NCBI RefSeq assembly: GCF_937425535.1
Contig: NZ_OW485601.1
Span: 2,196,501-2,260,500 of the forward strand
Source of the DNA: Rhodovastum atsumiense
GTDB lineage: Bacteria > Pseudomonadota > Alphaproteobacteria > Acetobacterales > Acetobacteraceae
Direction of reading: 5' to 3'
DNA: 64,000 bases
Below the pieces are notes generated by a model. The model was not told the origin of the DNA and ran no database searches. It saw only the letters and a program-made list of their open reading frames with translations. Within the stretch, counting starts at the first letter, position 1, and each line of letters opens with the position of its first letter. Shown piece by piece: positions 44,828-63,638 of the stretch. The position numbers were made by a program, and so were the translations under genes.

Positions 44828-46945
44828 GTGATTACCAGGCATTTTCAACTCGGCGCGGATTTCCCCGAGGTCAGCTACGCCGACTGGCGCAAGGCCGTGG
44901 AAGGCGATCTCAAAGGGGCTCCCTTCGAGAAACGCATGATCTCGCGCGGCTACGAGGGAATCGAGCTACAGCCGCTCTACACCGAGGACATCTTCCCGAC
45001 CCGCGAGGATCCGTCCGGCGTACCGGGCCATCCGCCCTTCGCCCGTGCGGCCTCGGTCCTGGGCAACCGTCTGCAGGGCTGGGACATCCGCCAGGAACCC
45101 GATCATCCCGATCCGGCGCAGGCGAATGCGCAGATCCTTGATGATCTCGCGGGGGGCGGCACTTCGGTGTCGCTGCGCCTGGATGCGGCCGCATGGCACG
45201 GCCTCGATGCCGACGCCCCGCAGGCCGGGCAGTGGTTCGGCCGGGATGGCGTCGCGATCTCCACCACGGCCGATCTGGCGCAGGTGCTGGACAAGATCCG
45301 GCTCGACGTCGCCGGGGCATGGCTGCATGCGGGCGCGGCCTTCCTGCCGGCCGCGGCGCTCTATGTCGCCACGGCGCAGGCCAACGGCGTCACGCCCGAC
45401 CGGCTGCTCGGCGGCTTCAACGCCGATCCGCTCGGCACGCTGATGCATGATGGCAGCCTGCCGGTGCCGGTGGAACGGGCGCTCGCCGACACCGCCGACC
45501 TTGCTTCGTGGACCGCGGCGAACGCACCGCGCATGACCGCGGTCGAGGTGAACACCTCGCCTTATCATGATGCCGGCGCGAATTCGGTGCAGGACCTGGC
45601 ATTCCTGCTCGGGAGCGGGGTCGCCTACCTGCGGGCGCTGACCGATGCGGGGCTCGACGTGAGCCTGGCCGCCCGGCAGATCCAGTTCAGCATCAGTGTC
45701 GGCGCCCGGTTCTACCAGGCAATTGCCAAGCTGCGGGCGGCACGGGTGCTGTGGGCCGCGGTGGTGGCGGCCGCCGGAGGCACCCCGGACGCGCAGGCCA
45801 TGCGGATGCGGGTCGCGACCGGGCGCCGCGTGCTGACCACGCGCGGCCAGTCCGTCAACATCCTGCGCAACACCGTGGCCGCCTATGCCGGCGCGATCGC
45901 CAGCGCCGAGGCCATCACCACCATTCCCTTCGACGCGCCGACCGGCATCAGCACAGAGCAAAGCCGGCGCAACGCCCGCAACACGCAGATCGTGCTGGCC
46001 GAGGAATGCCACCTCAACCATGTCGTCGATCCGGCCGGCGGGGCCTGGTACATCGAGTGGTATACGCAAACCTTCGTTGAACAGGCCTGGGCGCTGTTCC
46101 AGCAGATCGAGGCGCAGGGCGGCATGATCGCAGCCATCGCCAACGGCTGGGTGGCAGAGCGCATCGCCGCCGTCGAGACGAAACGCGAGCGTGACATCGC
46201 CAGCCGCAAGGTGCCGATCACCGGCATCAGTGAGCATCCCAGCATCCACGAATTGCGCACGCCGCAACAGGTGATCGACCGGGCCGCCCTGCGCGACGCC
46301 ACGGCCCGGAAGCTGGCGGCGTGGCGGTCGGGGCACGCATCGGGTACGGCGCTGGCCGCGCTCGCCGCCTCCCAGGACGGACGGACCGCGGCCGCGATCG
46401 CGGCGGCCCAAGCCGGTGCGACCCTGGGCGAAATCGCCGCTGCGCTGGTGCCGCCGGGCAGCGAGCCGGCCCATGTGTCGCCGCTGGTCGTGCATCCCTA
46501 CGACGAAGCCTTCGAAGACCTGCGTGACGCCGCCGAGGCTTTCGCGACCCGCAAGGGCCATCCGCCGCGCGTGTGGCTCGCCGGCATCGGCAGCATCGCC
46601 GAGCAGACGGCCCGCCGCAACTTCAGCCGCAACCTGTTCGAGAGCGGCGGCTTCGAGGTGCTCGGCCACGAGGCCGCCACGGATGTGGAACAGGCTGCTG
46701 CTGCCTTCGCGCAGAGCGGTGCCACGGTCGCGGTGATCTGCTCGACCGACAAGCGTTACCCGGCCGTGGTGCCCGAGCTGGCGCCGAAGCTGAAGGCGGC
46801 CGGTGCGCGCCATGTCATCCTGGCCGGCAATCCCGGTGCGGCGGAAGCAGCCTACCGGGAAGCCGGCGTGGACCGGTTCATCTTTGTTCGCTGCGACGTC
46901 CTGGAAACCTTGTGGTCGCTGCTGCGCGCGGAGGAGGCGGTGTAA
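44828..46945 (+). CDS. mutA: Methylmalonyl-CoA mutase small (non-catalytic) subunit
   Basis: A 705-aa subunit of the heterodimeric adenosylcobalamin enzyme that interconverts succinyl-CoA and (R)-methylmalonyl-CoA. The N-terminal barrel is complete ([43 protein letters not shown], the internal [18 protein letters not shown] and [14 protein letters not shown]). The C-terminal Rossmann domain has lost the cobalamin D-x-H-x-x-G motif, as expected of MutA. The start is a GTG (44828) after a G-rich ribosome site. The stop overlaps mutB by one base (TAATG). Confidence 0.93.
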
Positions 46946-49134
46946 TGAGCCGGATCCCGAACTTCGCCACCAAGTCCTGGGCGGACGTCCGTCCCGCGGC
47001 CACCGCCCCGCAATCCTGGCAGGAGGCCGCCACGCGGCAGGCCGGGCGGCCGCCGGCCGAACTGGCCTGGAACACCGAAGAAGGCATCGCCATCCGGCCG
47101 CTCTATACCGGCGCCGATATCGCCGGGTTGGAGCATCTGCATACCTATCCGGGCTTCCCGCCTTTCGTGCGCGGCCCGTACGCGTCGATGTACGTCACGC
47201 GCCCCTGGACGGTACGGCAATATGCCGGCTTCTCCACCGCCGAGGCCTCCAACGCGTTCTACAAGCGCAACATGGCGGCGGGGCAGAAGGGGCTGAGCAT
47301 CGCCTTCGACCTGCCGACGCATCGTGGCTACGATTCCGACAACCCGCGCGTGGCCGGCGATGTCGGCATGGCCGGCGTCGCCATCGACAGCATCCTTGAC
47401 ATGCGCATCCTGTTCGACGGCCTGCCGCTCGATCAGATCAGCGTGTCGATGACAATGAACGGCGCCGTGCTGCCGGTGCTGGCGATGTACGTCGTCGCCG
47501 CGGAAGAGCAGGGGGTGAAGCAGGCGCAACTGACCGGGACCATCCAGAACGACATCCTCAAGGAGTTCATGGTCCGCAACACCTTCATCTATCCGCCCAC
47601 GCCAAGCATGAAGATCGTGGGCGACATCTTCCGCTACACCAGCCAGCATATGCCGGCGTTCAACAGCATCAGCATCTCCGGCTATCACATGCAGGAGGCT
47701 GGGGCGACCGCCGACCTTGAGCTCGGCTACACGCTCGCGGACGGGCTGGAATACCTGCGCACCGGCATCGCCGCCGGACTGAAGGTGGACGAGTTCGCGC
47801 CGCGGCTGTCGTTCTTCTGGTCGATCGGCAAGAACGTCATGATGGAAGTCGCCAAGATGCGCGCCGCGCGCATGCTGTGGGCGAAGATCGTCAATCAGTT
47901 CGACCCGCACAACCCCAAGAGCCTGTCGCTGCGCACGCACAGCCAGACCAGCGGCTGGAGCCTGACGGCGCAGGACGTATTCAACAACGTCGTGCGCACC
48001 TGCGTCGAGGCCATGGCGGCGACCCAGGGCCAGACGCAAAGCCTGCATTCCAATTCGCTGGACGAGGCGCTCGGCCTGCCGACCGAATTCTCCGCCAACA
48101 TCGCCCGCAACACCCAGCTTTTCCTGCAGGAGGAAACCGACACCGACCTGGTGATCGATCCCTGGGGCGGCAGCTACTACGTCGAATGGCTGACCAACGA
48201 GCTCGCCCAGAAGGCCTGGAGCCATATCGTCGAATGCGAGGAGCATGGCGGCATGACCAAGGCCATTGAGGCCGGGCTGCCGAAGATGCGCATCGCCGAC
48301 GCCGCGGCCCGCACCCAGGCGCTGATCGACAGCGGCCAGCAAACCATCGTCGGGCTCAACCGCTACCGGCCCACGCATGACGATCCGATCAACGTGCTGA
48401 AGATCGACAACACCGCGGTGCGCGAGGCGCAGATCCGCCGGCTGCAGGAACTGCGGGCGTCGCGCGACCAAAACGCGGTGACCGCGGCGCTGGAGGCGCT
48501 GACCGCCAGCGCCCGCAGCGGCGAGGGCAACCTGCTCGCGCTGTCGATCGAGGCGGCCCGGCTGAAGGCCAGCGTCGGCGAGATCAGCGACGCACTGGAA
48601 AAGGTCTATGGCCGCTTCCAGCCGCAGCCCCAGCTCGCCACCGGCGTCTACGCCCGCCAGATGGGAGAAGGCATCACCATCGTGCAGCGCATCCGCGAAA
48701 GGGTCGACGCCTTCCTGGAGGCCGAGGGACGACGCCCGCGCATCCTGGTCGCCAAGCTCGGCCAGGATGGGCATGACCGCGGCCAGCAGGTGGTCGCCTC
48801 GGCCTTCGCCGATCTGGGCTTCGATGTGGATATCGGCCCGCTGTTCCAGACCCCCGAGGAAGCCGCGCAGGCAGCGGTGGACAACGACGTGCACATCGTC
48901 GGCGCGAGCTCGCTGGCGGCCGGGCACCTGACGCTGATCCCGGCGCTCAAGCGCGCTTTGGTCGCCCTCGGCGCGCCGCATATCCTGGTGGTGGCCGGCG
49001 GCGTGATCCCGCCGCAGGACTACGACGAGCTGCGGCGCAACGGCATCGACGCGATCTTCGGGCCCGGTTCGGTGATCGCCGACTCCGCCGGGGCCCTGCT
49101 GGACATGCTGGACCGGCGGGCGGCGGCGGACTGA
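46945..49134 (+). CDS. mutB: Methylmalonyl-CoA mutase large (catalytic) subunit
   Basis: A 729-aa catalytic subunit. N-terminal TIM barrel with [25 protein letters not shown] (in parts), [49 protein letters not shown] and the substrate region [13 protein letters not shown]. The C-terminal cobalamin-binding domain has D608-x-H610-x-x-G613 (GQDGHDRG) and [18 protein letters not shown] precedes the ATG. Tightly coupled to mutA, and 8 bp from meaB. The cofactor could come from the riboswitch-controlled cob operon 10 kb away. Confidence 0.97.
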
Positions 49135-49142
49135 CAGCGCGC

Positions 49143-50159
49143 ATGTCCGCGATGACCGAGCCGGCGCCCCGGCGTGGGCCAGGGGTCGACGAGTACGCCG
49201 CGGGACTGCTCGCCCGCAACCGCGGCATGCTCGCCCGCGCCATCACCCTGGTGGAATCACGCCGGCCCGAGCATCAGGCGATGGCCGCCGAATTGATCAA
49301 CCGGTTGCTGCCGCACACCGGCCGCGCCATCCGCGTCGGCCTGACCGGGGTGCCCGGCGCGGGCAAGAGCGCCCTGATCGAGGCGCTCGGCAGTTGGCTC
49401 ACCGCGCGCGGCCATCGCGTCGCGGTGCTGTCGATCGATCCGTCCTCCACCCGCTCCGGCGGCAGCCTGCTCGGCGACAAGACCCGCATGACGCGGCTGA
49501 GCGCCGATCCCAACGCCTTCATCCGCCCCTCGCCGAGCGGGCTGGTGCTCGGCGGCATCGCCCGGACCACGCGCGAGACCATGCTGCTGTGCGAGGCGGC
49601 CGGCTACGACGTGGTGCTGATCGAGACCGTCGGCGTCGGCCAGTCCGAGGTCTCGGTCGCCGACATGACGGATTTCCTGCTGGTGCTGATGCTGGCCGGT
49701 GCCGGCGACGAATTGCAGGGCATCAAGCGCGGCCTGCTGGAACTGGCCGACATGATCGCCATCACCAAGGCCGATGGCAGCAACGTCACCGCGGCCCGGC
49801 GGGCGGCAACCCAGTACAGCTTCGCCATGCACCTGCTGTGCGAGCCTGGGGAGCCGGAACCAGTGGTGACCACCTGCAGCGCCCTGGAAGGCACCGGACT
49901 CGCAGAAATCTGGCAGGCCATCAGCGACCGTCAGGCCGAACGCGAACGCTCCGGGTCGTTGGCGGCCCGCCGCGCCCGGCAGAACACGGTGTGGATGTGG
50001 TCACTGGTCGACCAGCATATCCGCACCATGCTGCGGGCCGGCGACATGATCGGACGAACCGCGGCCGAGGTCGAAATCGAAGTGCGGGCCGGCACGCTCT
50101 CGCCGATGAGCGGGGCCGATATGATCCTGGGGGCACTTGGGTTGCCGTCTCTGAAGTAA
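49143..50159 (+). CDS. meaB: Methylmalonyl-CoA mutase-associated GTPase MeaB
   Basis: A 338-aa G3E GTPase that loads and protects the mutase cofactor. Walker A LTGVPGAGKSALIEALG near residue 62, switch region DPSSTRSGGSLLGDKTRM, Walker B VVLIETVGVGQSEV, base recognition ITKADG, and a C-terminal dimerisation arm. Ends with the usual GADMILGALGL region. It completes the mutA-mutB-meaB operon; two repeat elements follow its stop. Confidence 0.95.
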   Translation: MSAMTEPAPRRGPGVDEYAAGLLARNRGMLARAITLVESRRPEHQAMAAELINRLLPHTGRAIRVGLTGVPGAGKSALIEALGSWLTARGHRVAVLSIDPSSTRSGGSLLGDKTRMTRLSADPNAFIRPSPSGLVLGGIARTTRETMLLCEAAGYDVVLIETVGVGQSEVSVADMTDFLLVLMLAGAGDELQGIKRGLLELADMIAITKADGSNVTAARRAATQYSFAMHLLCEPGEPEPVVTTCSALEGTGLAEIWQAISDRQAERERSGSLAARRARQNTVWMWSLVDQHIRTMLRAGDMIGRTAAEVEIEVRAGTLSPMSGADMILGALGLPSLK

Positions 50160-50165
50160 GCAAGG

Positions 50166-50208
50166 CCAGGGCTTTGCCCTGGACCCAGCAGGGGCCACAA
50201 GGCCCCTG
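50166..50208 (+). repeat. Partial double-hairpin repeat next to copy B
   Basis: CCAGGGC-TTT-GCCCTGG (50166-50182) then CAGGGGCC-ACAA-GGCCCCTG (50189-50208): same plan as the first two hairpins of the triple-hairpin repeat but with different bases in the stems. It directly follows the meaB stop and may serve as its terminator. Confidence 0.65.
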
Positions 50209-50240
50209 CACCCCACTAGCGCTGCGCGGCACAGAAAATC

Positions 50241-50314
50241 GGGTTCCAAGGGCGAAGCCCTTGGTGGAAGTGCAGGAGGCGGAGCCTCCTGCCGGGGCCG
50301 GGGCAGCGCCCCGG
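50241..50314 (+). repeat. Triple-hairpin repeat, copy B
   Basis: CCAAGGGC-GAA-GCCCTTGG (50246-50264), CAGGAGGC-GGA-GCCTCCTG (50273-50291) and CCGGGGC-AGC-GCCCCGG (50298-50314). It fills the gap between the convergent meaB and mmdB genes and could terminate both. Confidence 0.85.
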
Positions 50315-50317
50315 ATC

Positions 50318-51448
50318 TTACGACGGCATCAGCAGCGCCAGCATGATCCCGCCCGACAGGGCCGTGCCGAACACGCCGGCCAGATTCGGCCCCATCGCAT
50401 GATAGATCAGGAAGTTTTCCGGATCGTCCTTCAGCGCCACCACATGCGTCACGCGCGCCGCGATCGGCACAGAAGCGATGCCGGCCGAACCGAGCAGTGG
50501 GTTGATCGGCTCCTTGAGGAACAGGTTCATGACCTTCGCGCCCAGCACGCCGGAAGCGGTGCCGAAGACGAAGGCCACCAGCCCCAGGAACACGATCATG
50601 ATGGTCTGCACGGTCAGGAAGCGGTCGGCCGCCATGGTGGAGCCGATTGCCACCGTCAGGATCACGATCACCACGTTCATCACGCCATTCGCGGCGGTCC
50701 GCGCCAGGCGTTCCGTCACCAGCACCTCGCGGAACAGGTTGCCCAGCATCAGCATGGTGATCAGCGGCGCCACCGGCGGCAGGAACAGGTTGACGATGAT
50801 GGCGATGACGACGGGGAAGGCGATCCGCTCGATGCGCGAGACCGGGCGCATCTGCGGCATGCGGATCATGCGCTCGCGCTTGCTGGTCAGCAGCCTCATC
50901 ACCGGCGGCTGGATCAGCGGCATCAGCGCCATGTAGGAATAGGCGGCGACCGAGATCTGCGGCAGCAGATGCGGCGCCAGCTTCACTGCCATGAAGATCG
51001 CCATCGGCCCGTCGGCACCGCCGATGATGCCGATCGCACCGGCCTCGTTGATGGTGAAGCCCATCACCTTGGCGAAAATCAAGGCGACGAAGATGCCCAG
51101 ATGCGCGGCCGCGCCCAACACCACCAGCTTCGGGTTGGCGATCATCGGCCCGAAATCGGTCATCGCGCCGACGCCGAAGAAGATCAGCGGCGGCAGGATC
51201 AGCAGTTCCACGCCCTTGTAGGCGTAGTGGAACAGCCCTCCTTCCAGGATCAGGTCGGACCCCGGGACATTGGAGACGACGCAGGAGAAGCCGATGCCGA
51301 CGAGCAGCAGCGGCTCGTATTTCTTGATGATCGCCAGCCCGATCATGGTGATGCCAACGGCGATCATCACCAGGTTGCCCCACCAGAAATGGGCAAGGCC
51401 GGTCTGGGCCGCGAGCGCCGCGAAGAAGGCCTCGAACTGGCTGAACAT
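50318..51448 (-). CDS. mmdB: Na+-translocating decarboxylase beta subunit (MmdB/OadB)
   Basis: A 376-aa polytopic membrane protein, the Na+-pumping and CO2-releasing subunit of biotin-dependent decarboxylases. Diagnostic sites are intact: GGADGP with the Na+-site Asp146, NPLLGSAGIASVPIAARV, and the C-terminal helix HAMGPNLAGVFGTALSGG with the Asn, Gly and Ser of the channel. The start is ATG 51448, nine bases after AAAGGAGG; a TTG upstream sits inside that site. Last gene of the operon. Whether the substrate is methylmalonyl-CoA or another acid comes from the alpha subunit and neighbours. Confidence 0.95.
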   Translation of the reverse strand: MFSQFEAFFAALAAQTGLAHFWWGNLVMIAVGITMIGLAIIKKYEPLLLVGIGFSCVVSNVPGSDLILEGGLFHYAYKGVELLILPPLIFFGVGAMTDFGPMIANPKLVVLGAAAHLGIFVALIFAKVMGFTINEAGAIGIIGGADGPMAIFMAVKLAPHLLPQISVAAYSYMALMPLIQPPVMRLLTSKRERMIRMPQMRPVSRIERIAFPVVIAIIVNLFLPPVAPLITMLMLGNLFREVLVTERLARTAANGVMNVVIVILTVAIGSTMAADRFLTVQTIMIVFLGLVAFVFGTASGVLGAKVMNLFLKEPINPLLGSAGIASVPIAARVTHVVALKDDPENFLIYHAMGPNLAGVFGTALSGGIMLALLMPS

Positions 51449-51469
51449 GACGGTCAACCTCCTTTCGGC

Positions 51470-51628
51470 TCAGTGATGGCGGAGGCTGTCGTCATCGAGC
51501 CGGACGACCCGGTTGAGCAGCGGCAGCAGCGCGAGCACCACACCGATGCCGCCGATCATGACGATGCTGAGGAAGAAATCGATCACGCTCAGGATGATGG
51601 CACCTTGCAGCGAATCCGGAACGATCAT
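51470..51628 (-). CDS. 52-aa single-span membrane protein, candidate small subunit of the decarboxylase
   Basis: A short but well-formed gene: ATG 51628 follows AGGAGG at normal spacing, and the frame ends 21 bp before the mmdB start. The product begins MIVPDSLQGAII, has a hydrophobic core of about 28 residues (IILSVIDFFLSIVMIGGIGV and LALLPLL) and ends in a charged tail (NRVVRLDDDSLRHH). Its position between the biotin carrier and beta subunit, and its size, recall the 55-residue epsilon subunit of the Veillonella methylmalonyl-CoA decarboxylase, but I see no clear sequence match; epsilon is related to the end of delta. Likely to stabilise the complex or anchor the carrier to the beta subunit (inference). 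Confidence 0.75.
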   Translation of the reverse strand: MIVPDSLQGAIILSVIDFFLSIVMIGGIGVVLALLPLLNRVVRLDDDSLRHH

Positions 51629-51683
51629 TCGAGCCTCCTGTGGCCGACCCGGGCTGGGGCGCCGGCTTGCATGGTCTTCGGTG

Positions 51684-52094
51684 TCAGCCCAGCGTCATCA
51701 GCACCTGGCCGGTTTCGACGCTGTCATTCGGCTTGACGGCAATGGTGGTGACCGTGCCCGAATTCTTGGCGAGCACAAAGGTTTTCATCTTCATCGCCTC
51801 GATGGTGGCGATCCGGTCACCCGGCTTCACCGCCTGCCCGACATGCGCGTCGATGGCGACCACGACGCCGGCCAGGGGTGCGACCTCGGCACCGGCGCCG
51901 CCGCCCTCCAGCACGGCCACCGGGGACGCCGCAGCCGGGGCTGGGGCTGCCGCCGACGGAGCGGCGGCGGGAACGACGGATGCAGCAGGGGCTGAAGCCG
52001 GCTGCGGCGCGCCCGGCTGGGCCGGTGCGGTGAGATCCTCGACGACGACATTGTAGCTGCGGCCATCGACGGTGATCCGAAAAGTCCTCTGCAT
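51684..52094 (-). CDS. mmdC: Biotin carrier subunit of the decarboxylase (MmdC-like)
   Basis: A 136-aa biotinyl protein. A short N-terminal strand region (FRITVDGRSYNVVVEDL) is followed by a flexible Pro/Ala linker of about 40 residues and the biotinyl domain with the acceptor Lys102 in EAMKMKT. It shuttles CO2 from the carboxyltransferase to the beta subunit. CGAGGAGCC precedes the ATG. There is no attached biotin carboxylase, and no such gene nearby, which favours decarboxylation over ATP-driven carboxylation. Confidence 0.93.
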   Translation of the reverse strand: MQRTFRITVDGRSYNVVVEDLTAPAQPGAPQPASAPAASVVPAAAPSAAAPAPAAASPVAVLEGGGAGAEVAPLAGVVVAIDAHVGQAVKPGDRIATIEAMKMKTFVLAKNSGTVTTIAVKPNDSVETGQVLMTLG

Positions 52095-52221
52095 GGCTCC
52101 TCGATTTTCCGGGTTCAGGCGTCTGGCGACGCAAACCGCTGCGGGCTTGCATCTTCATTCAGGGCCGGGCGGCGGGTTGGCGATGGCATGAGCGTTTCGT
52201 CCTGGTTCCGCGCCGGCCGGC

Positions 52222-52563
52222 TCAGTGGGGGCGATGGGATGTCTGGTGCAGCCACCGTCCCTGCGAGGACCAGACCTGCCCACGGGCAGTGTCCTCGATA
52301 TGCACGATGCGATGGCTGTCGAACATGGCAGCGACCGCGGCTGCGATCACCGGCAGATCCTCGGCAAGCCCGGGCGGGGAGGTCGCCGCCACCGCGGCCC
52401 GCGCCGAGACCAGCTCGGTCGTGGGGGCGCGGGTGTCGGTCGGCGAGTCCTGCGCGTAGCGGATCAGCGCCACGAGCAGGCGCCATCCCCAGTAGAAGCA
52501 GCTCAGCAGCCCGATGACGGCCAGCCAGTCACCGATCTGGCCGCGGAAGAGGGGCTCATACAT
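52222..52563 (-). CDS. mmdD: OadG-like membrane-anchor subunit of the decarboxylase (MmdD)
   Basis: A 113-aa protein with one N-terminal membrane helix (WLAVIGLLSCFYWGWRLLVALI, about residues 12-33), a flexible acidic/Pro stretch and a C-terminal segment PVIAAAVAAMFDSHRIVHIED plus GRWLHQTSH, the pattern of OadG/MmdD delta-type subunits that tie the carboxyltransferase to the membrane. AAGGAGG precedes the ATG. It follows the alpha subunit gene by 25 bp. The gap to mmdC is 127 bp and holds only a 24-codon open frame of doubtful value. Confidence 0.85.
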   Translation of the reverse strand: MYEPLFRGQIGDWLAVIGLLSCFYWGWRLLVALIRYAQDSPTDTRAPTTELVSARAAVAATSPPGLAEDLPVIAAAVAAMFDSHRIVHIEDTARGQVWSSQGRWLHQTSHRPH

Positions 52564-52588
52564 GGGGGAAACCTCCTTGCCCTGCGCG

Positions 52589-54136
52589 CTACAGCGGGAT
52601 GTTGCCGTGCTTCTTGGGCGGCCGGGTCTCTCGCTTGGTCGCGGCCTTGCGCAGCGACAGCACCACCGTCCAGCGGGTCGCCGCCGGATCGATCACATCG
52701 GTGATGTAGCCGTGGCCGGCGGACAGATAGGGTGTCGCGAATTCGGCGCGATAGGCAGCGGCCAGCTCGGCGGCCTTGGCGCGACGATCCTCGGCGGCCT
52801 TCAGTTCCTTGCTGTAGAGCACGTTGACCGCGCCTTCGGCCCCCATCACCGCGATCTCGGCGGTCGGCCAGGCATAGACGAAATCCGCCCCCATTTCCTG
52901 GCTGCACATGGCAAGATAGGACCCGCCATAGGCCTTGCGCAGGATCACCGTGACCTTCGGCACCGTCGCCGAGGCATAGGCGAACAGCATCTTGGCGCCA
53001 TGGCGGATGATGCCGCCGCGCTCCTGCTCCACGCCCGGCAGGAAGCCGGGCACGTCGACCAGCGTGACCAGCGGGATGTTGAAGGCGTTGCAGAAGCGGA
53101 TGAAGCGGGCCCCCTTGTCGGCGGCGTCGATGTCCAGCGCGCCCGCCTTCACCAGCGACTGGTTGGCGATCAGCCCCACCACGAAGCCGCCGATGCGGGC
53201 GAAGCCGACGATCAGGTTGCCGGCGAAGTCGGCATGCACTTCCAGCAGCTCGCCGTCATCGACCAGCCTCGCGATCACCGGCCGCACATCCATCGGCAGC
53301 GTCGGGTCATCGGGGATCAGGTCGTGGATGGCGAGGTCGGGTGTCTCGTCGATGTCCAGGCTCGGCCGGTGCGGCGGATCCTCGGCGTTGTTGGACGGCA
53401 GGTAGCTGAGCAGCCGACGCACCAGGGAAACGGCATGGGCATCGTCCTCGGCGAGGAAATGCACGTTGCCGCTGACCGCGGCATGCATCGCCGCGCCGCC
53501 GACCTCGTCCATCGTCACCGTTCGCCCGGTCACCGCCTTGATCACCTCCGGGCCGGTGATGAACATGCGGGCGTTGTTGCGGGTCATGACGACGAAGTCC
53601 ATCAGCGCCGGCGAATAGGCCGCGCCCCCCGCGCAGGGCCCGCAGACCACCGCGATCTGCGGCACCACGCCCGAGAGCAGGACGTTCTGGAAGAACACCT
53701 CGCCATAGCCCGAGAGCGCGTCCACCGCTTCCTGGATGCGCGCCCCGCCGGAGTCGTTGAACGCCACCACCGGCATCCCGGCGCGGCCGGCAAGCTGCAT
53801 GGCCCGCACGATCTTGGCGGCATGCATCTTCCCGAGCGTGCCGGCGGCCACCATGAAATCCTGGCTGAAGGAAGCGACCGGCCGACCATCGACATAGCCG
53901 GTGCCGGCCACCACGCCATCGGCCGGGAAGTCCTTGGTCACGCCACCCTGCGGGTTGGCGCGAATATGCATGCCGATTTCCTGGAAGGTGCCCTCCTGGA
54001 ACAGCCCATTCAGCCGCTCGCGGGCGGTGAGTTGCCCCAGCTCGTGGCGGGCCTTGGCCTTGTCCTCGCCGCCAGCAGTGGCGATCCTGGCGCTGCGCTC
54101 GCGCAGTTCTTCCAAAAGCTTGGCAGACAGCGTCAT
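52589..54136 (-). CDS. mmdA: Methylmalonyl-CoA decarboxylase alpha (carboxyltransferase) subunit
   Basis: A 515-aa acyl-CoA carboxyltransferase of the PccB/MmdA type: ARERLNGLFQEGTFQEIG, SQDFMVAAGTLGKMHAAKI, DSGGARIQEAVDALSGYGEVF, CGPCAGGAAYSPALMDFVVM, then GFARIGGFVVGLIANQS, LVDVPGFLPGVEQE and KAYGGSYLAMCSQEMGADFVYAWPTAEIAVMG in parts. It moves CO2 between methylmalonyl-CoA and biotin. PccB has the same fold, so the substrate is inferred from the neighbours: mutase, epimerase and Na+-pump subunits. The ATG at 54136 lies after GGTGGAAAG. It follows the epimerase gene by 61 bp. Confidence 0.93.
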   Translation of the reverse strand: MTLSAKLLEELRERSARIATAGGEDKAKARHELGQLTARERLNGLFQEGTFQEIGMHIRANPQGGVTKDFPADGVVAGTGYVDGRPVASFSQDFMVAAGTLGKMHAAKIVRAMQLAGRAGMPVVAFNDSGGARIQEAVDALSGYGEVFFQNVLLSGVVPQIAVVCGPCAGGAAYSPALMDFVVMTRNNARMFITGPEVIKAVTGRTVTMDEVGGAAMHAAVSGNVHFLAEDDAHAVSLVRRLLSYLPSNNAEDPPHRPSLDIDETPDLAIHDLIPDDPTLPMDVRPVIARLVDDGELLEVHADFAGNLIVGFARIGGFVVGLIANQSLVKAGALDIDAADKGARFIRFCNAFNIPLVTLVDVPGFLPGVEQERGGIIRHGAKMLFAYASATVPKVTVILRKAYGGSYLAMCSQEMGADFVYAWPTAEIAVMGAEGAVNVLYSKELKAAEDRRAKAAELAAAYRAEFATPYLSAGHGYITDVIDPAATRWTVVLSLRKAATKRETRPPKKHGNIPL

Positions 54137-54197
54137 TCTTTCCACCCGTCGTTGCATCGCCAGGCACCGCCCTCGCGGCGGTGCCCGCATCGTTGCG

Positions 54198-54602
54198 TCA
54201 GGCCTGCTGCAGCTCCACCAGCGTGCCGTTGAGATCCTTTGGATGCAGGAACAGGACCGGCTTGTCATGCGCGCCGATCTTCGGCTCGCCGTCGCCCAGC
54301 ACCCGCAATCCGACGGATTTCAACTGGTCGCGGGCGACCAGGATATCGTCCACCTCGAAACACATGTGATGGATGCCGCCCGAGGGATTCTTTTCAAGAA
54401 AGGCCGCGATCGGCGAGCGCTCGCCCAGCGGGTTGATCAGCTCGATGCGGGTGTTGTCGACATCGACGAAGACCACGGTGACACCGTGCGCGGGCTGCGG
54501 CAGCGGGTCGGACACCGTGGCACCGAGCTTCTCGCGATAGGTCCGGGCCGCCGCCTCGAGATCGGGCACGGCGATCGCGACATGGTTCAGCCTGCCAAGC
54601 AT
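54198..54602 (-). CDS. mce: Methylmalonyl-CoA epimerase
   Basis: A 134-aa glyoxalase-fold enzyme swapping the (R) and (S) forms of methylmalonyl-CoA. Motifs: LNHVAIAVPDLEAAARTY with a metal His, HGVTVVFVDVDNTRIELINPLGE, GGIHHMCFEVDDI with the second His and LHPKDLNGTLVELQQ with the metal Glu. CAGGAGGGC precedes the ATG. First gene of the mce-mmdA-mmdD-mmdC-mmdB operon, which links the mutase and decarboxylase stereochemically. Confidence 0.95.
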   Translation of the reverse strand: MLGRLNHVAIAVPDLEAAARTYREKLGATVSDPLPQPAHGVTVVFVDVDNTRIELINPLGERSPIAAFLEKNPSGGIHHMCFEVDDILVARDQLKSVGLRVLGDGEPKIGAHDKPVLFLHPKDLNGTLVELQQA

Positions 54603-54875: not shown

Positions 54876-56726
<1,851 letters not shown>

Positions 56727-57572: not shown

Positions 57573-58859
57573 TCAGGGCGGGGCGTACCCGGCCTGCGCC
57601 ACCGCCGCCGGCCGGCCGGGCAGATGCAGCCGCGTGTGACGCGGCGGCGATTCCGCAATGACGGTTCCGCGTCGCACCACGGCAAGCCGCGCGGCGCGCA
57701 GGCGGATCGCCTCGATCGGATCGGCCGCGTCCAGCAGCACCATGTCGGCATGACACCCCGGTGACAGGCCATACTCCGCCAGCCCGAGGATGCGCGCGGC
57801 ATTGGTCGTCACCGCATCAAAACAAAACCGCATGCCTTCGCGGCTGGTCATCATGCCCACGTGCAGCCCCATATGCGCCACGTCCAGCATGTCCGCGCCG
57901 CCGAGCGGGTACCAGGGATCCATCACGCAGTCATGACCGAACGCCACCGTGACCCCCGCCTGACGCAGCTCCGGCACCCGCGTCATGCCGCGCCGCTTGG
58001 GATAGGTGTCGTGCCGCCCCTGCAGCGTGATGTTGATCAGCGGATTGGCGATCGCGGCGACCCCGGCCTCCGCCATCAGCGGCAGCAGCTTCGAGACGTA
58101 GTAATTGTCCATCGAATGCATCGAGGTCAGATGCGACCCGGCCACGCGGCCCGCCAGGCCCAGGCGCTGCGTCTCGGCGGCCAGGGTCTCGATGTGGCGC
58201 GAGTGCGGGTCATCGCTCTCGTCGCAATGCATGTCCACCATCAGGCCACGGCGTGCGGCGATGGCACAGAGCGCGCGCACCGACTCCGCGCCATCGGCCA
58301 TGGTCCGCTCGAAATGCGGGATGCCGCCAACCACGTCCACGCCCATGTCGAGCGCCCGCTCCAGGTTGGCCGCGGCCCCGGGTGCGCGTAGATAGCCGTC
58401 CTGCGGAAAGGCGACCAGTTGCAGGTCGATCCAGGGCCGGACGCACTCGCGCACCTCCAGCAGGGCCTCGACCGCGAGCAGGCGTGGGTCGCAGACATCC
58501 ACATGGCTGCGAATCGCCAGCAGCCCCTGCGCCACCGCCAGGTCACAGTAGCGCAGGGCGCGTTCCACCACTGCCTCCCGGGTCAGGGTCGGCTTCAGTT
58601 CCCCCCACAGCGCGATCCCCTCCAGCAAGGTGCCGGACTGGTTCAGCCGCGGCAGCCCGAGCGAAAGGGTCGAATCGAGATGGAAATGAGCATCCACGAA
58701 AGGCGGCGAGACCAGTCGCCCGCCGGCATCGATCACCCGCCCGGCGGCGGCGGTGATGCCGGGGGCGACGGCCTGGATCCTGCCCTGGGCGCAGGCGATG
58801 TCCACGCCACGCTGCCCATCCGGCAGGCAGGCGTCATGGATGATCAGGTCGAAGCTCAT
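57573..58859 (-). CDS. Amidohydrolase, cytosine deaminase-like
   Basis: A 428-aa metal-dependent amidohydrolase of the CodA group. Metal and catalytic motifs: HFHLD near residue 58, IRSHVDVCDP, HCDESDD (His and Glu), SHLTSMH and the late Asp in FGHDCVMDPWYPLGGADML, which is close to the CodA motif. It would deaminate cytosine, isocytosine or another N-heterocycle. It is divergent from a nucleoside/base ABC transporter, consistent with salvage of imported bases. A neighbouring-family substrate (for example creatinine or isoguanine) cannot be excluded. Confidence 0.88.
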   Translation of the reverse strand: MSFDLIIHDACLPDGQRGVDIACAQGRIQAVAPGITAAAGRVIDAGGRLVSPPFVDAHFHLDSTLSLGLPRLNQSGTLLEGIALWGELKPTLTREAVVERALRYCDLAVAQGLLAIRSHVDVCDPRLLAVEALLEVRECVRPWIDLQLVAFPQDGYLRAPGAAANLERALDMGVDVVGGIPHFERTMADGAESVRALCAIAARRGLMVDMHCDESDDPHSRHIETLAAETQRLGLAGRVAGSHLTSMHSMDNYYVSKLLPLMAEAGVAAIANPLINITLQGRHDTYPKRRGMTRVPELRQAGVTVAFGHDCVMDPWYPLGGADMLDVAHMGLHVGMMTSREGMRFCFDAVTTNAARILGLAEYGLSPGCHADMVLLDAADPIEAIRLRAARLAVVRRGTVIAESPPRHTRLHLPGRPAAVAQAGYAPP

Positions 58860-59058
58860 CAGGGCCTCCGCGCTCGGGCGATCTGGTCATGATTATGACG
58901 GCTTGGCCCCGGCTCGCCCATCCGCCAGACTGCGCGGCCGTGAGCACGAGCGCGCCGCCTTCGGCACGATATTTGCCTCTCCGCGGGTTTTCCTGCGCGG
59001 GGTGTCGTTCGCTGCCCGCAGGTCCAAACCGGGCGCATCCCAGGGTGAAGGCATATCA

Positions 59059-60072
59059 ATGACGACTCGAACCGATTCCCCCGCCGGCCTCGGCCGCCGC
59101 GGCGCGCTGACGCTTGGCGCTGCCACCCTGCTCGGGGCCCTGCCGGCGCGCGGGCATGCCGCGGCACCGCTGAAGGTGGGCGCCATCTTCTCCACCCCGA
59201 TCGAGGAGCCGTGGGACCACCAGATCCATGTCGCCCTGGTGCAGGCGCAGAAGGTGCACGGCATCGCCTATCAATGGTCCGAGCACGTCGCCGCCGCCGA
59301 TTTCGGCCGGGTGATGCGCGAATATGCCGAGAAGGGCTGTGCCCTGGTGGTGGGTGACGCCTTCGCCGCCGAAACCATCGCCCGCCGCGTCGCGCGATCC
59401 TATCCCAAGGTAGCCTTTGCCTTCGGCTCCGGCCAGGGCCCGGTCAATCCGAATTTCAGCGTATTCGACAACTGGATTCACGAGCCCGCCTATCTCAGCG
59501 GCATGATCGCCGGCAAGATGACGAAGTCGGGCGTGGTCGGCTCGGTCGCCGCCATGGACATCCCGGAGGTCGCCCGGCTGGTGAATGCCTTCAATCTCGG
59601 CGCCCGTGATGCCCGTCCGGACGTGAAGTGCAAGGTCACCTTCATCGGTTCGTTCTTCGATCCCCCCAAGGCAAAGGAAGCCGCGGTCGCGCAGATCGAG
59701 GCCGGGGTGGACGTGATCTTCGCCGAGCGCTTCGGCGTCATCGAGGCGGCAAAGGAACGAAACATCCTGGCCATCTCCAACATGTCCGACCAATCGGCGC
59801 TGGCGCCGGACACGGTCATCACCGGCCCGGTCTGGGATATGTGGCCGACGATCGACGCGGTGGTGAAGATGGTGAAGGCCGGTGTGTTCACCGCGCAGGA
59901 TCTCGGCAGTTTCTCCTTCATGGCCAAGGGTGGCGCGAAGCTGGCCCCGTTCCATGCCTGGGAGCAGAAGCTGCCCGCCGATGTGCGCAAGCTGGTGGCG
60001 CAGAAGCAGGCCGAGATCATCGACGGCACGTTCCGCGTACCGGTGATCGAGACCACGCCGAAATCCGAGTAG
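59059..60072 (+). CDS. BMP-family ABC transporter substrate-binding protein
   Basis: A 337-aa periplasmic lipoprotein-like binding protein of the basic membrane protein (PnrA/Med) family, which binds nucleosides, purines or related bases. The N-terminus has a Tat-like GRRGALTLGAATLLG run. Family features: KVGAIFSTPIEEPWDHQIHVALVQAQ, FGSGQGPVNPNFSVFDNWIHEPAYLSGMIAG and VDVIFAERFGVIEAAKE (each in part). GAAGG nine bases before ATG 59059 sets the start. First of four transporter genes; ends 6 bp before the ATPase start. Confidence 0.92.
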   Translation: MTTRTDSPAGLGRRGALTLGAATLLGALPARGHAAAPLKVGAIFSTPIEEPWDHQIHVALVQAQKVHGIAYQWSEHVAAADFGRVMREYAEKGCALVVGDAFAAETIARRVARSYPKVAFAFGSGQGPVNPNFSVFDNWIHEPAYLSGMIAGKMTKSGVVGSVAAMDIPEVARLVNAFNLGARDARPDVKCKVTFIGSFFDPPKAKEAAVAQIEAGVDVIFAERFGVIEAAKERNILAISNMSDQSALAPDTVITGPVWDMWPTIDAVVKMVKAGVFTAQDLGSFSFMAKGGAKLAPFHAWEQKLPADVRKLVAQKQAEIIDGTFRVPVIETTPKSE

Positions 60073-60077
60073 CATTC

Positions 60078-61643
60078 ATGTCCGGGATCCAAGGGCCTCC
60101 GGCCCTTGGCGAGGTGCAGGGGCAGAGCCCCTGCCGGGGTCCGGGGCAGCGCCCCGGCGCGCTGGTCGCCATGCGCGGGATTTCCAAGCGTTTCGGCACG
60201 GTGCAGGCCTGCGCCGGGATCGATCTCACGGTCCATGCCGGCGAGATCCTGGGTTTGCTGGGCGAGAACGGTGCCGGCAAGACCACGTTGATGAACATCC
60301 TGTTCGGCACCTATGCGGCCGATGCGGGATCGATCGAGGTGGATGGTCGTCCCGTGCGCGTCGCCAGTTCCGCGGATGCGCTGCGGCTTGGCATCGGCAT
60401 GGTGCACCAGCATTTCCAGCTCGTGCCGCGACACACCGTGCTGGAAAATCTGCTGGTCGGCCGTGGCCTCGACCGCGCCACCGCGCTGGCGCGGCTGGAA
60501 GCAATCGGCCGTGACTTCCGTCTCATGCTCGCCCCGGATGCGCTGGTCGGTGACCTGTCGGTGGGTGAGCAGCAGCGGGTCGAGATCGCCAAGAGCCTGG
60601 TGCGTGGCGCGCGCGTGCTGGTGCTGGACGAGCCCACCGCCACGCTGACGCCCGAGGAAAGCCGTGGCCTGTTCGCCGCCTTGCGGGCGATGGCGGCGCG
60701 TGGGCTCGGCGTGATCTTCATCAGCCACAAACTTGGCGAAGTGCTTGATCTCACCTCGCGCATCACCGTGCTGCGCCATGGCCGCGTGGTGGCGGCGTGC
60801 GACAACGACGGCACGCTGTCAAGGGCCGGTCTGGCGCGCATGATGTGCGGGCGGGAACTGGCGCCGCCGGTGCGCGAGGCGCTCGCGCCAGGCCGTCCCC
60901 TGCTGCAGATCGAGACCGTCTCCGCCCGCCGGGGCCGCAGTGCGCTGCACGAGGTTTCGCTGACAGTGCGCGCGCATGAGATCGTCGGCATCGCCGGGGT
61001 CGCCGGCAACGGCCAGCGGGAACTCGCGGACCTTGTTGCCGGCGTGCTGTCGCCGGAACGGGGCCGCGTGCTGGTGGAAGGGGTCCCCGTGCCGCGTCCC
61101 GATCCCAGGGAGATGCAGGCACGGGGGATCGGTCGCGTGCCGGAGGACCGGCTGGTCACCGGCATGATCCCCAGCCTGTCACTGGCCGAGAGCATGGCGC
61201 TGCCACGCTTCGGCCAGAAGCCGTTCAGCCGCTTCGGCCTGCTCGACCGCGCCGCCATGCGGCGTTTCGCCCAGGAGCAGATCTTCCGCTTCGATATCCG
61301 CACCAGCGGGCCGCAGGCGCGCAGTGGCACGCTTTCTGGCGGCAATCTGCAAAAGGCGCTGCTGGCACGCGAGCTTGCCTGGAATCCGCGCCTGCTGCTG
61401 GTGGCGCAGCCGACGCGCGGCATCGATATCGGGGCCGCCGAGCGCGTGCACCGCTGCTTTCTCGACCTGCGCCGCGCGGGTGGCGGGGTGCTGCTGATCA
61501 GCGAGGACCTGGAAGAATTGTTCGCGCTTTCCGACCGCATCGCGGTGATGTTCGCCGGCCGCATCGTCGCCGACCTGCCCGTGGCCGAGGCGAGCGTCGA
61601 GCGCATCGGCCTGCTGATGGCCGGCGTGGCCGAGGCGGCATGA
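60078..61643 (+). CDS. Nucleoside/base ABC transporter ATP-binding protein (two ABC domains)
   Basis: A protein of about 521 aa with two ATPase halves. First half: Walker A GENGAGKTTLMNIL, signature LSVGEQQRVEIAKSL, Walker B VLVLDEPTATLTPEE. Second half: degenerate GVAGNGQRELADLV, signature LSGGNLQKALLAREL, and LLVAQPTRGIDIGAAE, the arrangement of RbsA/YufO-type importers. Starting at ATG 60078 makes the first 28 residues the translation of a triple-hairpin repeat (MSGIQGPPALGEVQGQSPCR...). The alternative ATG 60171 gives 490 aa but trims the first strand of the domain and lacks a ribosome site. Stop overlaps the next start by ATGA. Confidence 0.9.
   Translation: MSGIQGPPALGEVQGQSPCRGPGQRPGALVAMRGISKRFGTVQACAGIDLTVHAGEILGLLGENGAGKTTLMNILFGTYAADAGSIEVDGRPVRVASSADALRLGIGMVHQHFQLVPRHTVLENLLVGRGLDRATALARLEAIGRDFRLMLAPDALVGDLSVGEQQRVEIAKSLVRGARVLVLDEPTATLTPEESRGLFAALRAMAARGLGVIFISHKLGEVLDLTSRITVLRHGRVVAACDNDGTLSRAGLARMMCGRELAPPVREALAPGRPLLQIETVSARRGRSALHEVSLTVRAHEIVGIAGVAGNGQRELADLVAGVLSPERGRVLVEGVPVPRPDPREMQARGIGRVPEDRLVTGMIPSLSLAESMALPRFGQKPFSRFGLLDRAAMRRFAQEQIFRFDIRTSGPQARSGTLSGGNLQKALLARELAWNPRLLLVAQPTRGIDIGAAERVHRCFLDLRRAGGGVLLISEDLEELFALSDRIAVMFAGRIVADLPVAEASVERIGLLMAGVAEAA
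60084..60157 (+). repeat. Triple-hairpin repeat, copy C, in frame with an ABC ATPase
   Basis: CCAAGGGCC-TCC-GGCCCTTGG (60089-60109), CAGGGGC-AGA-GCCCCTG (60117-60133) and CCGGGGC-AGC-GCCCCGG (60141-60157). All 74 bases are open in the reading frame of the ATPase gene. Confidence 0.85.
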
Positions 61644-62701
61644 TGCACCTGCGCCTGGAACGCCGCGAGACCACGCCCCTCTGGCTGCAACTGGTGCTGC
61701 CATTGGCGGCTGTCCTCGTCACCCTGCTCCTGTGCGCGGCGCTGGTGCGCCTGGCGGGGGCCGATGTGCTGGATGCCTATGCCGAGTTGTTCCTTGGCCC
61801 GGTGCGCAGCAGCTTCGACCTGCAGCAGACGCTGATCAAGACGGCACCGCTGGTGCTCACCGGACTTGCGGTCACGGTGGCCTTCCGCGCGAAGTTCTGG
61901 AACATCGGCGCCGAAGGGCAACTGCTCGCCGGTGCGGTCGCCGCCGGGTTCGTCGGCCAGCGCATGATCCTGCCGGACGTGGCGCTGGTTCCCCTGATGC
62001 TGGCGGCCGGGGCCGCGGGGGGCGCCGCTATCGCCCTGCTGCCCGCCTTGTTGCGGGTGCGGCTGCGGGTGGACGATGTGGTCACCACGCTGCTGCTCAA
62101 TTCCATCACGCTTTACGCGCTGATGGCGTTGCTGGAAGGAGCCTGGAAGGATCCGCATGGCGGCTTCCCCAGCTCCGCGCCGATCCGGCCGGAAGCGGAA
62201 TTCCCGATGCTCGGCGGCAGCGACCTGCATCTCGGCGTGGTGGTCGCGCTGGTCGCGGCGGTGCTGACCTGGGCCCTGATCGCGCGCACCACGCTCGGCT
62301 TTGCCATCCGGGCCGTGGGGGCAGGGGCCCCGGCGGCACGCTACGCCGGCATCCGCGTCGACCGCGTGCTTGTCACCGCCGCGGCGATCTCCGGCGCACT
62401 CGCCGGCCTGGCCGGGGCGGGCGAGGTGGGCGGAGTGCATTTCCTGGTCATCTCCGACATCTCGCCGGGCTACGGCTATGCCGGCATCGTCGTCGCCATG
62501 CTGGCCGAGCTGAATCCGCTCGGCGTGGTGCCGGCGGCGCTGTTCTTCGCGATGGTGCTGACCGGGGCGGAATCGATGTCGCGCGCCACCGGGGTGCCCG
62601 TGTACCTGGCCCAGGTCATCCAGGGCGTCGCCCTGCTGGCCATGGTCGGCATCCGGCTGTTCGCGACCTATCGCCTGCGAGTGGGACGCGATCATGCCTG
62701 A
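61640..62701 (+). CDS. ABC transporter permease, BMP/nucleoside type (YufP-like)
   Basis: A 353-aa inner-membrane protein with eight to ten helices. Family features: TAPLVLTGLAVTVAFRAKFWNIGAEGQLLAGAV (in parts), RVDDVVTTLLLNSI and GISGALAGLAGAGEVGG. It starts at a double ATG overlapping the ATPase stop by four bases and ends 8 bp inside the second permease gene, so all are co-translated. Confidence 0.93.
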   Translation: MMHLRLERRETTPLWLQLVLPLAAVLVTLLLCAALVRLAGADVLDAYAELFLGPVRSSFDLQQTLIKTAPLVLTGLAVTVAFRAKFWNIGAEGQLLAGAVAAGFVGQRMILPDVALVPLMLAAGAAGGAAIALLPALLRVRLRVDDVVTTLLLNSITLYALMALLEGAWKDPHGGFPSSAPIRPEAEFPMLGGSDLHLGVVVALVAAVLTWALIARTTLGFAIRAVGAGAPAARYAGIRVDRVLVTAAAISGALAGLAGAGEVGGVHFLVISDISPGYGYAGIVVAMLAELNPLGVVPAALFFAMVLTGAESMSRATGVPVYLAQVIQGVALLAMVGIRLFATYRLRVGRDHA

Positions 62702-63638
62702 CCTGCTGCAACCCTTCCTGGAAGCCGGCTTCGTCGCGGCCCTGCTGCGCATCGCCACGCCACTGCTGTTTGCCACCCTCGGCGAGCTGTTCAGCGAACG
62801 CGCCGGCGTGCTCAACCTGGGCATCGAAGGCACCATGCTGCTCGGCGCCATGGTCGGCTTCACCGCCGCCCATGCCAGCGGCAGCCTGTGGCTGGGCATC
62901 CTGGCCGCCGCCCTCGCCGGCGCCGCCTGCGGCGCCCTGCTGGCGAGCTTCACCGTGGGCCTGGGGGTCAGCCAGCACGTCTGCGGCATCGGCGTGACCC
63001 TGCTCGCGACCGGACTCGCGTTCTTCTTCTACCGTTTGGTATTTGGACAACCCGCTGTTCCCCCTGCGGTAGTTCCGTTCGCGCCACTGCCGGTACCGGG
63101 ACTGGCATCACTGCCCTGGCTTGGCCCGGCTTTGTTCCAACAGACCGCTTTGACCTATCTGGCATTGCTCGCCGTGCCGCTGACGGGGCTCGTGTTGTTC
63201 CGCACGCGCTGGGGCCTGAACCTGCGCACCGTGGGCGAAAATCCTCGCGCGGCGGACGCGGCCGGCGTGAACGTGGCGGCGATGCGTACCCAGGCCGTGG
63301 TGCTGGCCGGCGCATTGATGGGCATCGGCGGCGCCTATCTCTCGCTGGCCCAGTTCAGCTCCTTCACCTTCGGCGTGGTGTCCGGACGCGGCTGGGTCTG
63401 CATCGCCCTGGTGGTGTTCGGCCAGTGGCGGCCCTGGCGGAGCGCCGCGGGGGCCCTGCTGTTCGCCCTGCTGGAAGCCCTGCAGTTGCGGCTGCAGGCC
63501 GCCAACATCCTGCAACTGCCCTACGAAGTGTTCCTCATGCTGCCCTTCGTGCTGACCATCGCGGTGATGGCGCTGGTCTCACGCGATGCCCGCGCACCGG
63601 CCAGCCTGCTGATCCCGTTCCGCAAGGAAGAAAGATAG
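62694..63638 (+). CDS. ABC transporter permease, BMP/nucleoside type (YufQ-like)
   Basis: A 314-aa partner permease. Features: TPLLFATLGELFSERAGVLNLGIEGTMLLGAM (in parts), the family's G-rich loop, RTRWGLNLRTVGENPRAADAAGVNV and GALMGIGGAYLSLAQFSSFTFGVVSGRGW. Together the two permeases, ATPase and binding protein make a complete importer for a nucleoside or base; the divergent deaminase suggests a pyrimidine-type substrate (inference). It converges on the Enzyme I-like gene with an 18-bp gap. Confidence 0.93.
   Translation: MPDLLQPFLEAGFVAALLRIATPLLFATLGELFSERAGVLNLGIEGTMLLGAMVGFTAAHASGSLWLGILAAALAGAACGALLASFTVGLGVSQHVCGIGVTLLATGLAFFFYRLVFGQPAVPPAVVPFAPLPVPGLASLPWLGPALFQQTALTYLALLAVPLTGLVLFRTRWGLNLRTVGENPRAADAAGVNVAAMRTQAVVLAGALMGIGGAYLSLAQFSSFTFGVVSGRGWVCIALVVFGQWRPWRSAAGALLFALLEALQLRLQAANILQLPYEVFLMLPFVLTIAVMALVSRDARAPASLLIPFRKEER

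What the first reader, a model, noticed from the sequence alone, without database searches (positions are those of the whole stretch)
44828..54602. Complete propionyl-CoA/succinyl-CoA interconversion module built around a Na+-pumping methylmalonyl-CoA decarboxylase
Two facing operons hold every enzyme between succinyl-CoA and propionyl-CoA: mutA-mutB-meaB on one strand, mce-mmdA-mmdD-mmdC-(52-aa gene)-mmdB on the other. The CO2 step is a membrane Na+-translocating type: beta subunit with the GGADGP and channel residues, OadG-like subunit, free biotin carrier, and no biotin carboxylase. Such systems are classically known from anaerobic fermenters (Veillonella, Propionigenium). Here the genome otherwise looks aerobic (homogentisate dioxygenase, phasin, cytochrome c), so the complex may run as a Na+-driven propionyl-CoA carboxylase or allow propionate-forming growth without oxygen. 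GTP-PEP carboxykinase lies next to it.
Basis: partly seen in the sequence, partly recalled or inferred. Interest (0 to 1): 0.78.

Follow-up and report, generated by a model that had tools for sequence, protein, structure and literature searches.

The report
Sodium-pumping methylmalonyl-CoA decarboxylase gene cluster
A purple photosynthetic soil bacterium carries a complete gene set for a known kind of membrane enzyme that links propionate metabolism to sodium pumping; what is worth testing is which way it runs, because the usual propionyl-CoA carboxylase was not found in this genome.

Summary
Two convergent operons encode MutA-MutB-MeaB (+ strand) and Mce-MmdA-MmdD-MmdC-52aa-MmdB (- strand), with GTP-PEPCK beside them. 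The 52-aa gene is a conserved membrane-anchor subunit, found with mmdB in 79 of 82 loci. MmdA resembles other MmdAs (71-76%) more than PccB (47-50%). "Otherwise aerobic" misreads the genome: it has pufL/pufM and fits Rhodovastum atsumiense, a purple nonsulfur phototroph. The enzyme occurs in other phototrophs and fermenters, and a succinate-to-propionyl-CoA role is already proposed for some: a new member of a known kind. Direction stays open. Eight of eight tested non-Acetobacteraceae proteobacteria with mmdA and mmdB in one locus also have PCC; none of seven Acetobacteraceae genomes gave a PCC_BT hit. I favour decarboxylation to propionyl-CoA as an anoxic electron sink. The Na+-driven, ATP-free carboxylase reading is not excluded, since of the methylcitrate cycle only prpB was found.

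The parts
44828..46945 (+). mutA, methylmalonyl-CoA mutase small subunit (no B12 domain)
   Evidence: PF01642 458 bits; TIGR00642 426 bits, below its cut-off 617
46945..49134 (+). mutB, methylmalonyl-CoA mutase large subunit with B12-binding domain; start overlaps mutA stop
   Evidence: NF006944 1243 bits, PF02310
49143..50159 (+). meaB, mutase chaperone GTPase
   Evidence: NF006958 458 bits
50318..51448 (-). mmdB, membrane carboxybiotin decarboxylase / Na+ pump beta subunit
   Evidence: PF03977 465 bits, TIGR01109 438 bits; aligned to 6iva; Asp203, Tyr229, Asn373, Gly377 counterparts invariant in 83 of 83 rows
51470..51628 (-). 52-aa single-helix membrane anchor subunit (epsilon/gamma-like; role inferred)
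   Evidence: relative beside mmdB in 79 of 82 loci; in 5 of the 19 longer versions an MmdD-like stretch follows in frame (L063, L066, L069, L077, L080)
51684..52094 (-). mmdC, free biotin carrier, EAMKM biotinylation site
   Evidence: PF00364; NF047903 75.5 bits, below cut-off 200
52222..52563 (-). mmdD-like / OadG-like delta subunit
   Evidence: NF047902 E 0.0086 only; conserved in position in Acetobacteraceae loci
52589..54136 (-). mmdA, carboxyltransferase alpha subunit
   Evidence: PF01039 593 bits; 71-76% to MmdA at 8 other mmd loci, 47-50% to carboxyltransferases beside PCC_BT genes at 3 loci
54198..54602 (-). mce, methylmalonyl-CoA epimerase
   Evidence: TIGR03081 165 bits, over cut-off
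54876..56726 (-). pckG, GTP-dependent PEP carboxykinase, neighbour; an inverted repeat lies between it and mce
   Evidence: NF003253 1003 bits; repeat read by eye

Best explanation
This is a biotin-dependent, Na+-translocating methylmalonyl-CoA decarboxylase (MmdABCD plus a small anchor subunit) with the mutase, its chaperone and the epimerase, in a purple nonsulfur acetobacterium. Shown by sequence: the subunits, no dedicated biotin carboxylase, no recognisable PCC in the genome. Inferred mechanism: MmdA moves CO2 from (S)-methylmalonyl-CoA to MmdC biotin; MmdB decarboxylates carboxybiotin and exports Na+. Most likely main direction (inferred): under anoxia, PEP + CO2 gives oxaloacetate (GTP-PEPCK), reduced via malate and fumarate to succinyl-CoA; MutAB, Mce and Mmd then yield propionyl-CoA, CO2 and a Na+ gradient. 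That disposes of electrons, with propionyl-CoA going to 3-hydroxyvalerate polymer or propionate. The pump is reversible in principle.
For: Families and order. MmdA is MmdA-like rather than PccB-like. The MmdB rows of Acetobacteraceae form one clade (100/99) inside a 31-row clade (100/99) with Telmatospirillum, Rhodoblastus and Roseiarcus. Outside the Acetobacteraceae, 8 of 8 tested proteobacterial genomes with mmdA and mmdB in one locus keep a PCC too (10 such loci known; L035 and L044 not tested), so there Mmd is not needed for carboxylation. This genome has a methylisocitrate lyase candidate (PrpB 425 bits, cut-off 354) as a possible other propionyl-CoA exit. GTP-PEPCK is adjacent. A like role is proposed for Defluviicoccus and type II Accumulibacter (passages).
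Against: This genome and its Acetobacteraceae kin with mmd gave no PCC_BT hit, so the comparison with PCC-bearing relatives does not transfer cleanly. PrpB stands alone among polyphosphate kinase, CoxG- and CoxE-like genes; prpC and prpD were not located. The motif sample covered only 2.17 of 7.42 Mb and missed even the housekeeping citrate synthase. One betaproteobacterium with mmdB, Formivibrio (L071, no mmdA in the locus), also lacks PCC. PEPCK adjacency was seen only in this genome and one same-genus locus (L024) among 82, many of them short upstream. No expression, flux or Na+ data exist here.
Confidence: 0.6

Rival explanations
1. The complex runs mainly backwards as an ATP-free, Na+-gradient-driven propionyl-CoA carboxylase that stands in for the missing PCC, feeding propionyl-CoA from valine, isoleucine or odd-chain acids into succinyl-CoA.
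For: No PCC recognised: two biotin carboxylases only, AccC (TIGR00514 709 bits, over cut-off) and one with a BT_MCC_alpha domain in an operon of an acyl-CoA dehydrogenase, a carboxyltransferase and HMG-CoA lyase. 0 of 7 distinct Acetobacteraceae genomes with mmd have PCC_BT. Reversibility of decarboxylase Na+ pumps is cited in PMC7274780 (passage).
Against: PrpB over cut-off is present in this genome and in 14 of 17 distinct Acetobacteraceae genomes tested (this one counted), with or without mmd. PCC_BT is found in only 6 of 200 family genomes (5 over cut-off), so its lack is common in the family and need not be a swap for mmd, as OAD_beta is in 3 of 200. No Nqr or Rnf to energise Na+.
Confidence: 0.22
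2. Reversible buffer: decarboxylates in dark anoxia, carboxylates in light or air, according to the Na+ gradient and the propionyl-CoA level.
For: Both needs can be argued for a phototroph without PCC; the pump type is reversible (passage).
Against: No direct evidence; PCC-bearing relatives keep a separate route.
Confidence: 0.15
3. The CT subunit pairs with a biotin carboxylase as an ordinary propionyl-CoA carboxylase, and MmdB is a bystander.
For: The best PDB hit is named PCC beta subunit (1vrg).
Against: No spare biotin carboxylase; MmdA is 47-50% to PccB-type genes against 71-76% to MmdA; the order mce-mmdA-mmdD-mmdC-52aa-mmdB is kept in Acetobacteraceae loci.
Confidence: 0.03

Closest known systems
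Na+-translocating methylmalonyl-CoA decarboxylase of Veillonella/Propionigenium (recalled, no call)
   Same: subunit types: CT alpha, biotin carrier, OadG-like delta, small epsilon, MmdB beta
   Different: host is a purple nonsulfur acetobacterium; mutase, MeaB and epimerase adjoin it; the Veillonella gene order was not compared here
Succinate-propionate (methylmalonyl-CoA) pathway of Defluviicoccus, proposed in PMC9041414 (passages read)
   Same: mutase, Mmd and a Na+ motive force proposed for anoxic redox balance and 3-hydroxyvalerate
   Different: Defluviicoccus has PCC and its two mmdB loci L045 and L055 show no mmdA within 8 kb; here one module and no PCC
Oxaloacetate decarboxylase beta subunit of Salmonella (PDB 6iva/6iww)
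   Same: family; Asp203, Tyr229, Asn373, Gly377 counterparts in 83 of 83 rows; Glu40 and Asn412 counterparts in the pairwise alignment
   Different: Ser382 counterpart is Ala with Ser one residue on, in all 83 rows

Membership tests
Na+-translocating methylmalonyl-CoA decarboxylase | carboxyltransferase alpha subunit of the methylmalonyl/propionyl-CoA type | tested here: met
   (TIGR01117 732 bits is below that model's cut-off 998.8)
Na+-translocating methylmalonyl-CoA decarboxylase | membrane beta subunit with conserved ion-site residues | tested here: met
   the Ser382 counterpart is displaced by one residue in all 83 rows
Na+-translocating methylmalonyl-CoA decarboxylase | separate biotin carrier with EAMKM | tested here: met
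   motif read from the DNA
Na+-translocating methylmalonyl-CoA decarboxylase | delta/OadG-like and small epsilon subunits | tested here: inconclusive
   52-aa gene conserved in 79 of 82 loci, no curated model; MmdD match E 0.0086
Na+-translocating methylmalonyl-CoA decarboxylase | Na+-dependent, avidin-sensitive activity | not testable with these tools
   needs membranes
Propionyl-CoA carboxylase | dedicated biotin carboxylase subunit PccA | tested here: not met
   2 biotin carboxylases in the genome, AccC and one of MCC type; no PCC_BT
Methylcitrate cycle as alternative propionyl-CoA exit in this genome | prpB, prpC and prpD/acnD | tested here: inconclusive
   prpB only; its tested neighbours are not prp genes; a 2.17 Mb motif sample gave no citrate synthase of any kind

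The most novel reading that the evidence does not exclude
In the Rhodovastum/Rhodopila lineage, in which no PCC was found, light-driven Na+ gradients power this complex in reverse as the cell's only propionyl-CoA carboxylase: ATP-free carboxylation in a phototroph.
Probability: 0.15. Interest if true: 0.72.

Novelty: new member of a known kind. Interest (0 to 1): 0.38.

Why it matters
It places a complete Na+-pumping methylmalonyl-CoA decarboxylase module in a purple phototroph for which gene deletion has been reported (PMC9938234, passage) and in which no propionyl-CoA carboxylase was found. Whether these pumps can serve as Na+-driven carboxylases in a living cell could be tested there with one gene deletion.

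Tried and rejected
FNR-like sites: 16 matches with up to 2 mismatches in the window, more than the shuffles gave (mean 5.6), but none lies just upstream of mutA or mce; not used. Ethylmalonyl-CoA pathway as a propionyl-CoA source here: no Ccr over cut-off in this genome. Nqr/Rnf partner: none. A first ORF clustering of loci was noisy from shadow ORFs in high-GC DNA and gave way to targeted tblastn. Paper searches for a phototroph or methylcitrate link to this enzyme gave nothing on point by their listings (the listed papers were not opened); likewise the Roseiarcus and Rhodopila-propionate searches and the first Na+/PCC search.

Phototrophy as a predictor of mmd: OAD_beta is in 3 of 200 family genomes, of which 2 have puf genes (the third, G091, is a draft in about 1110 contigs); puf genes are in 67 of 200 (66 over cut-off), so phototrophy alone does not predict it.

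Not given: L028, L035, L044 and other loci beyond the 37 named there.
Full report
Observation. The two convergent operons are present as described. Families: mutA, mutB, meaB on the + strand (44828-50159); mce, mmdA, mmdD-like, mmdC, 52-aa, mmdB on the - strand (50318-54602); pckG at 54876-56726. The MmdD assignment is weak by model (E 0.0086), and MmdA, MmdC and MutA score below the cut-offs of their NCBIfam subunit models. An inverted repeat without a clear T-run lies between pckG and mce (read by eye), so co-transcription of pckG is uncertain.

Organism. The genome has 9 contigs and 7,423,543 bases, the largest contig 6,482,810, and carries pufL and pufM. PMC9938234 (passages read) gives one 6.48-Mb chromosome and eight plasmids for Rhodovastum atsumiense G2-11. 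The match of size and number is my basis for naming it; no sequence comparison was made. PMC7005127 (part 1 of 2 of its text read) describes the species as an acidophilic nonsulfur purple bacterium isolated from paddy soil.

Substrate and partner. MmdA is 71-76% identical to MmdA at 8 other proteobacterial mmd loci, 47-50% to carboxyltransferases beside PCC_BT genes at three loci (L114-L116; two further PCC regions, L112 and L113, gave no hit), and 35% to this genome's own MccB-type gene. Solved relatives are PCC beta, transcarboxylase 12S and a 'hypothetical methylmalonyl-CoA decarboxylase alpha subunit'; glutaconyl-CoA decarboxylase is distant (106 bits against 626 for the best). Biotin carboxylases number two: AccC (TIGR00514 709 bits, cut-off 627) and one with a BT_MCC_alpha domain (49 bits, cut-off 31) in an operon with an acyl-CoA dehydrogenase, a carboxyltransferase and HMG-CoA lyase, as in leucine breakdown (pathway knowledge). 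The six carboxyltransferase matches are MmdA, that MccB-type gene, malonate decarboxylase beta and gamma, AccA and AccD. No gene is left over for PccB.

Beta subunit. MmdB aligns over residues 8-373 with Salmonella OadB. In 83 of 83 rows (81 different) the counterparts of Asp203, Tyr229, Asn373 and Gly377 are kept; that of Arg389 is Arg in 79 and Lys in 4; that of Ser382 is Ala in all, with Ser at the next position. In the pairwise alignment Glu40 and Asn412 also have Glu and Asn counterparts. PMC7274780 (passages) reports that S382A abolishes Na+ binding in Salmonella. Since the shift is shared with Veillonellaceae and Sporomusaceae rows, I read it as a subfamily trait and not as loss of Na+ coupling; this is inference and a point against a simple residue match.

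52-aa gene. A relative lies by mmdB in 79 of 82 loci (the 3 without are L093, L097 and L099, all cut short by a contig end near mmdB; L016/L024 and L017/L023 are the same two genomes). 19 of 79 frames are longer than 75 aa, 15 of them downstream of mmdB; 60 are short. In L063, L066, L069, L077 and L080 an MmdD-like stretch follows in the same frame, and Pfam sees a sub-threshold OAD_gamma match in the L063 protein (22.1 bits, cut-off 27); the longer L087 protein matched nothing. I take the 52-aa protein as the anchor half of a split gamma/delta subunit.

Distribution. OAD_beta occurs in 3 of 200 family genomes, this one included. The 80 best loci elsewhere (293 stretches encoded a relative, 80 kept) come from Acetobacteraceae MAGs, Rhodoblastus, Roseiarcus, Telmatospirillum, Blastochloris, Rubrivivax, Rhodoferax, Accumulibacter, Competibacter, Defluviicoccus, Geobacteraceae, Verrucomicrobiota and Negativicutes among others. 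MmdB of Acetobacteraceae form one clade (100/99, 10 rows). mmdB lacks an mmdA in the same locus in 28 of 45 loci with full flanks, so many listed genomes are not evidence for a module of this shape. The mutase genes adjoin mmd in L022, L024 and L025, mutB and meaB in L023, but not within the held flanks of L026 and L027.

PCC against Mmd. PCC_BT was found in 25 of 40 handles, 38 distinct genomes after merging. Limited to loci with mmdA and mmdB together: 8 of 8 tested non-Acetobacteraceae proteobacteria have PCC (L029, L030, L036, L039, L042, L052, L059, L069; in L030 mmdA lies on the other strand), 0 of 2 Geobacteraceae (L064, L088), and 0 of 7 distinct Acetobacteraceae genomes with mmd. Formivibrio (L071), without mmdA in the locus, has none either. 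PCC_BT is one domain: G091, G204 and G205 have three biotin carboxylases each, so a PCC without a recognisable BT domain is not excluded there; G000, G076, G200 and G203 have two. In the family as a whole PCC_BT is in 6 of 200.

Other routes. PrpB over cut-off is in 16 of 26 handles (14 of 17 distinct Acetobacteraceae genomes, this one included) and in none of 7 non-Acetobacteraceae handles, some of which have weaker matches. In this genome it lies between a membrane-protein-like frame (no Pfam match) and CoxG-, AAA- and CoxE-like genes, with histone-deacetylase-like and polyphosphate kinase genes further on; similar neighbours recur in several relatives. A motif scan of 2.17 of 7.42 Mb found no citrate synthase of any kind, so it says nothing about prpC. 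An isocitrate lyase family gene is present. Ccr over cut-off is in 6 of 26 handles and Nqr/Rnf in 6 of 26, in neither case in this genome.

Reading. The enzyme and its chemistry are known. For Defluviicoccus, PMC9041414 (passages) proposes the same pathway with a Na+ motive force and valerate polymer, and denies it for Accumulibacter; PMC12604563 (passages) reports higher mmd transcription in type II Accumulibacter under low phosphate. Relatives that keep PCC beside Mmd favour Mmd working towards propionyl-CoA, and the PEPCK neighbour fits a CO2-neutral PEP-to-propionyl-CoA branch (pathway knowledge, not tested). PEPCK adjacency is narrow: this genome and L024 (same genus) among 82 loci, several of which are short upstream. 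Against this stands the lack of PCC here. I put decarboxylation at 0.6 and mainly carboxylation at 0.22.

Verdict. Real, complete, a new member of a known kind, of moderate interest because the direction question becomes testable.

Noticed in passing
L011:4949-11002 (same genome, C1 5080948-5087001): A second Na+-pump-type beta subunit: MadB (TIGR03136 775 bits, cut-off 597) next to malonate decarboxylase MdcA, acyl carrier, beta and gamma genes, in a purple phototroph.
   Followed up: partly
L045, L051, L055, L075, L086, L090, L098, L101: An mmdB with the small anchor gene, without mmdA in the locus, lies within a few kb of a sensor kinase and response regulator pair in Defluviicoccus, Competibacter and Geminisphaera. 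KdpD was confirmed by Pfam in L045 and L098 only; the kinase match is 33% in L051 and L055, 61-100% in the best piece of the others.
   Followed up: partly
L110:7005-8180 (-) and L119, L122-L125, L128: A stand-alone methylisocitrate lyase-like gene near conserved CoxG-, AAA- and CoxE-like genes (family-tested in L110 only) in several Acetobacteraceae.
   Followed up: partly
50318-51448: The Ser382 counterpart of the Na+ site is shifted by one residue in all 83 MmdB rows.
   Followed up: partly
57573-63638: An amidohydrolase-like gene facing a lipoprotein-ABC-permease set that looks like a nucleobase/nucleoside importer (names recalled from the look of the frames, no family search).
   Followed up: no
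window: FNR-like palindromes with up to 2 mismatches: 16 found against 5.6 expected, no shuffle of 100 reached it; not explained.
   Followed up: no
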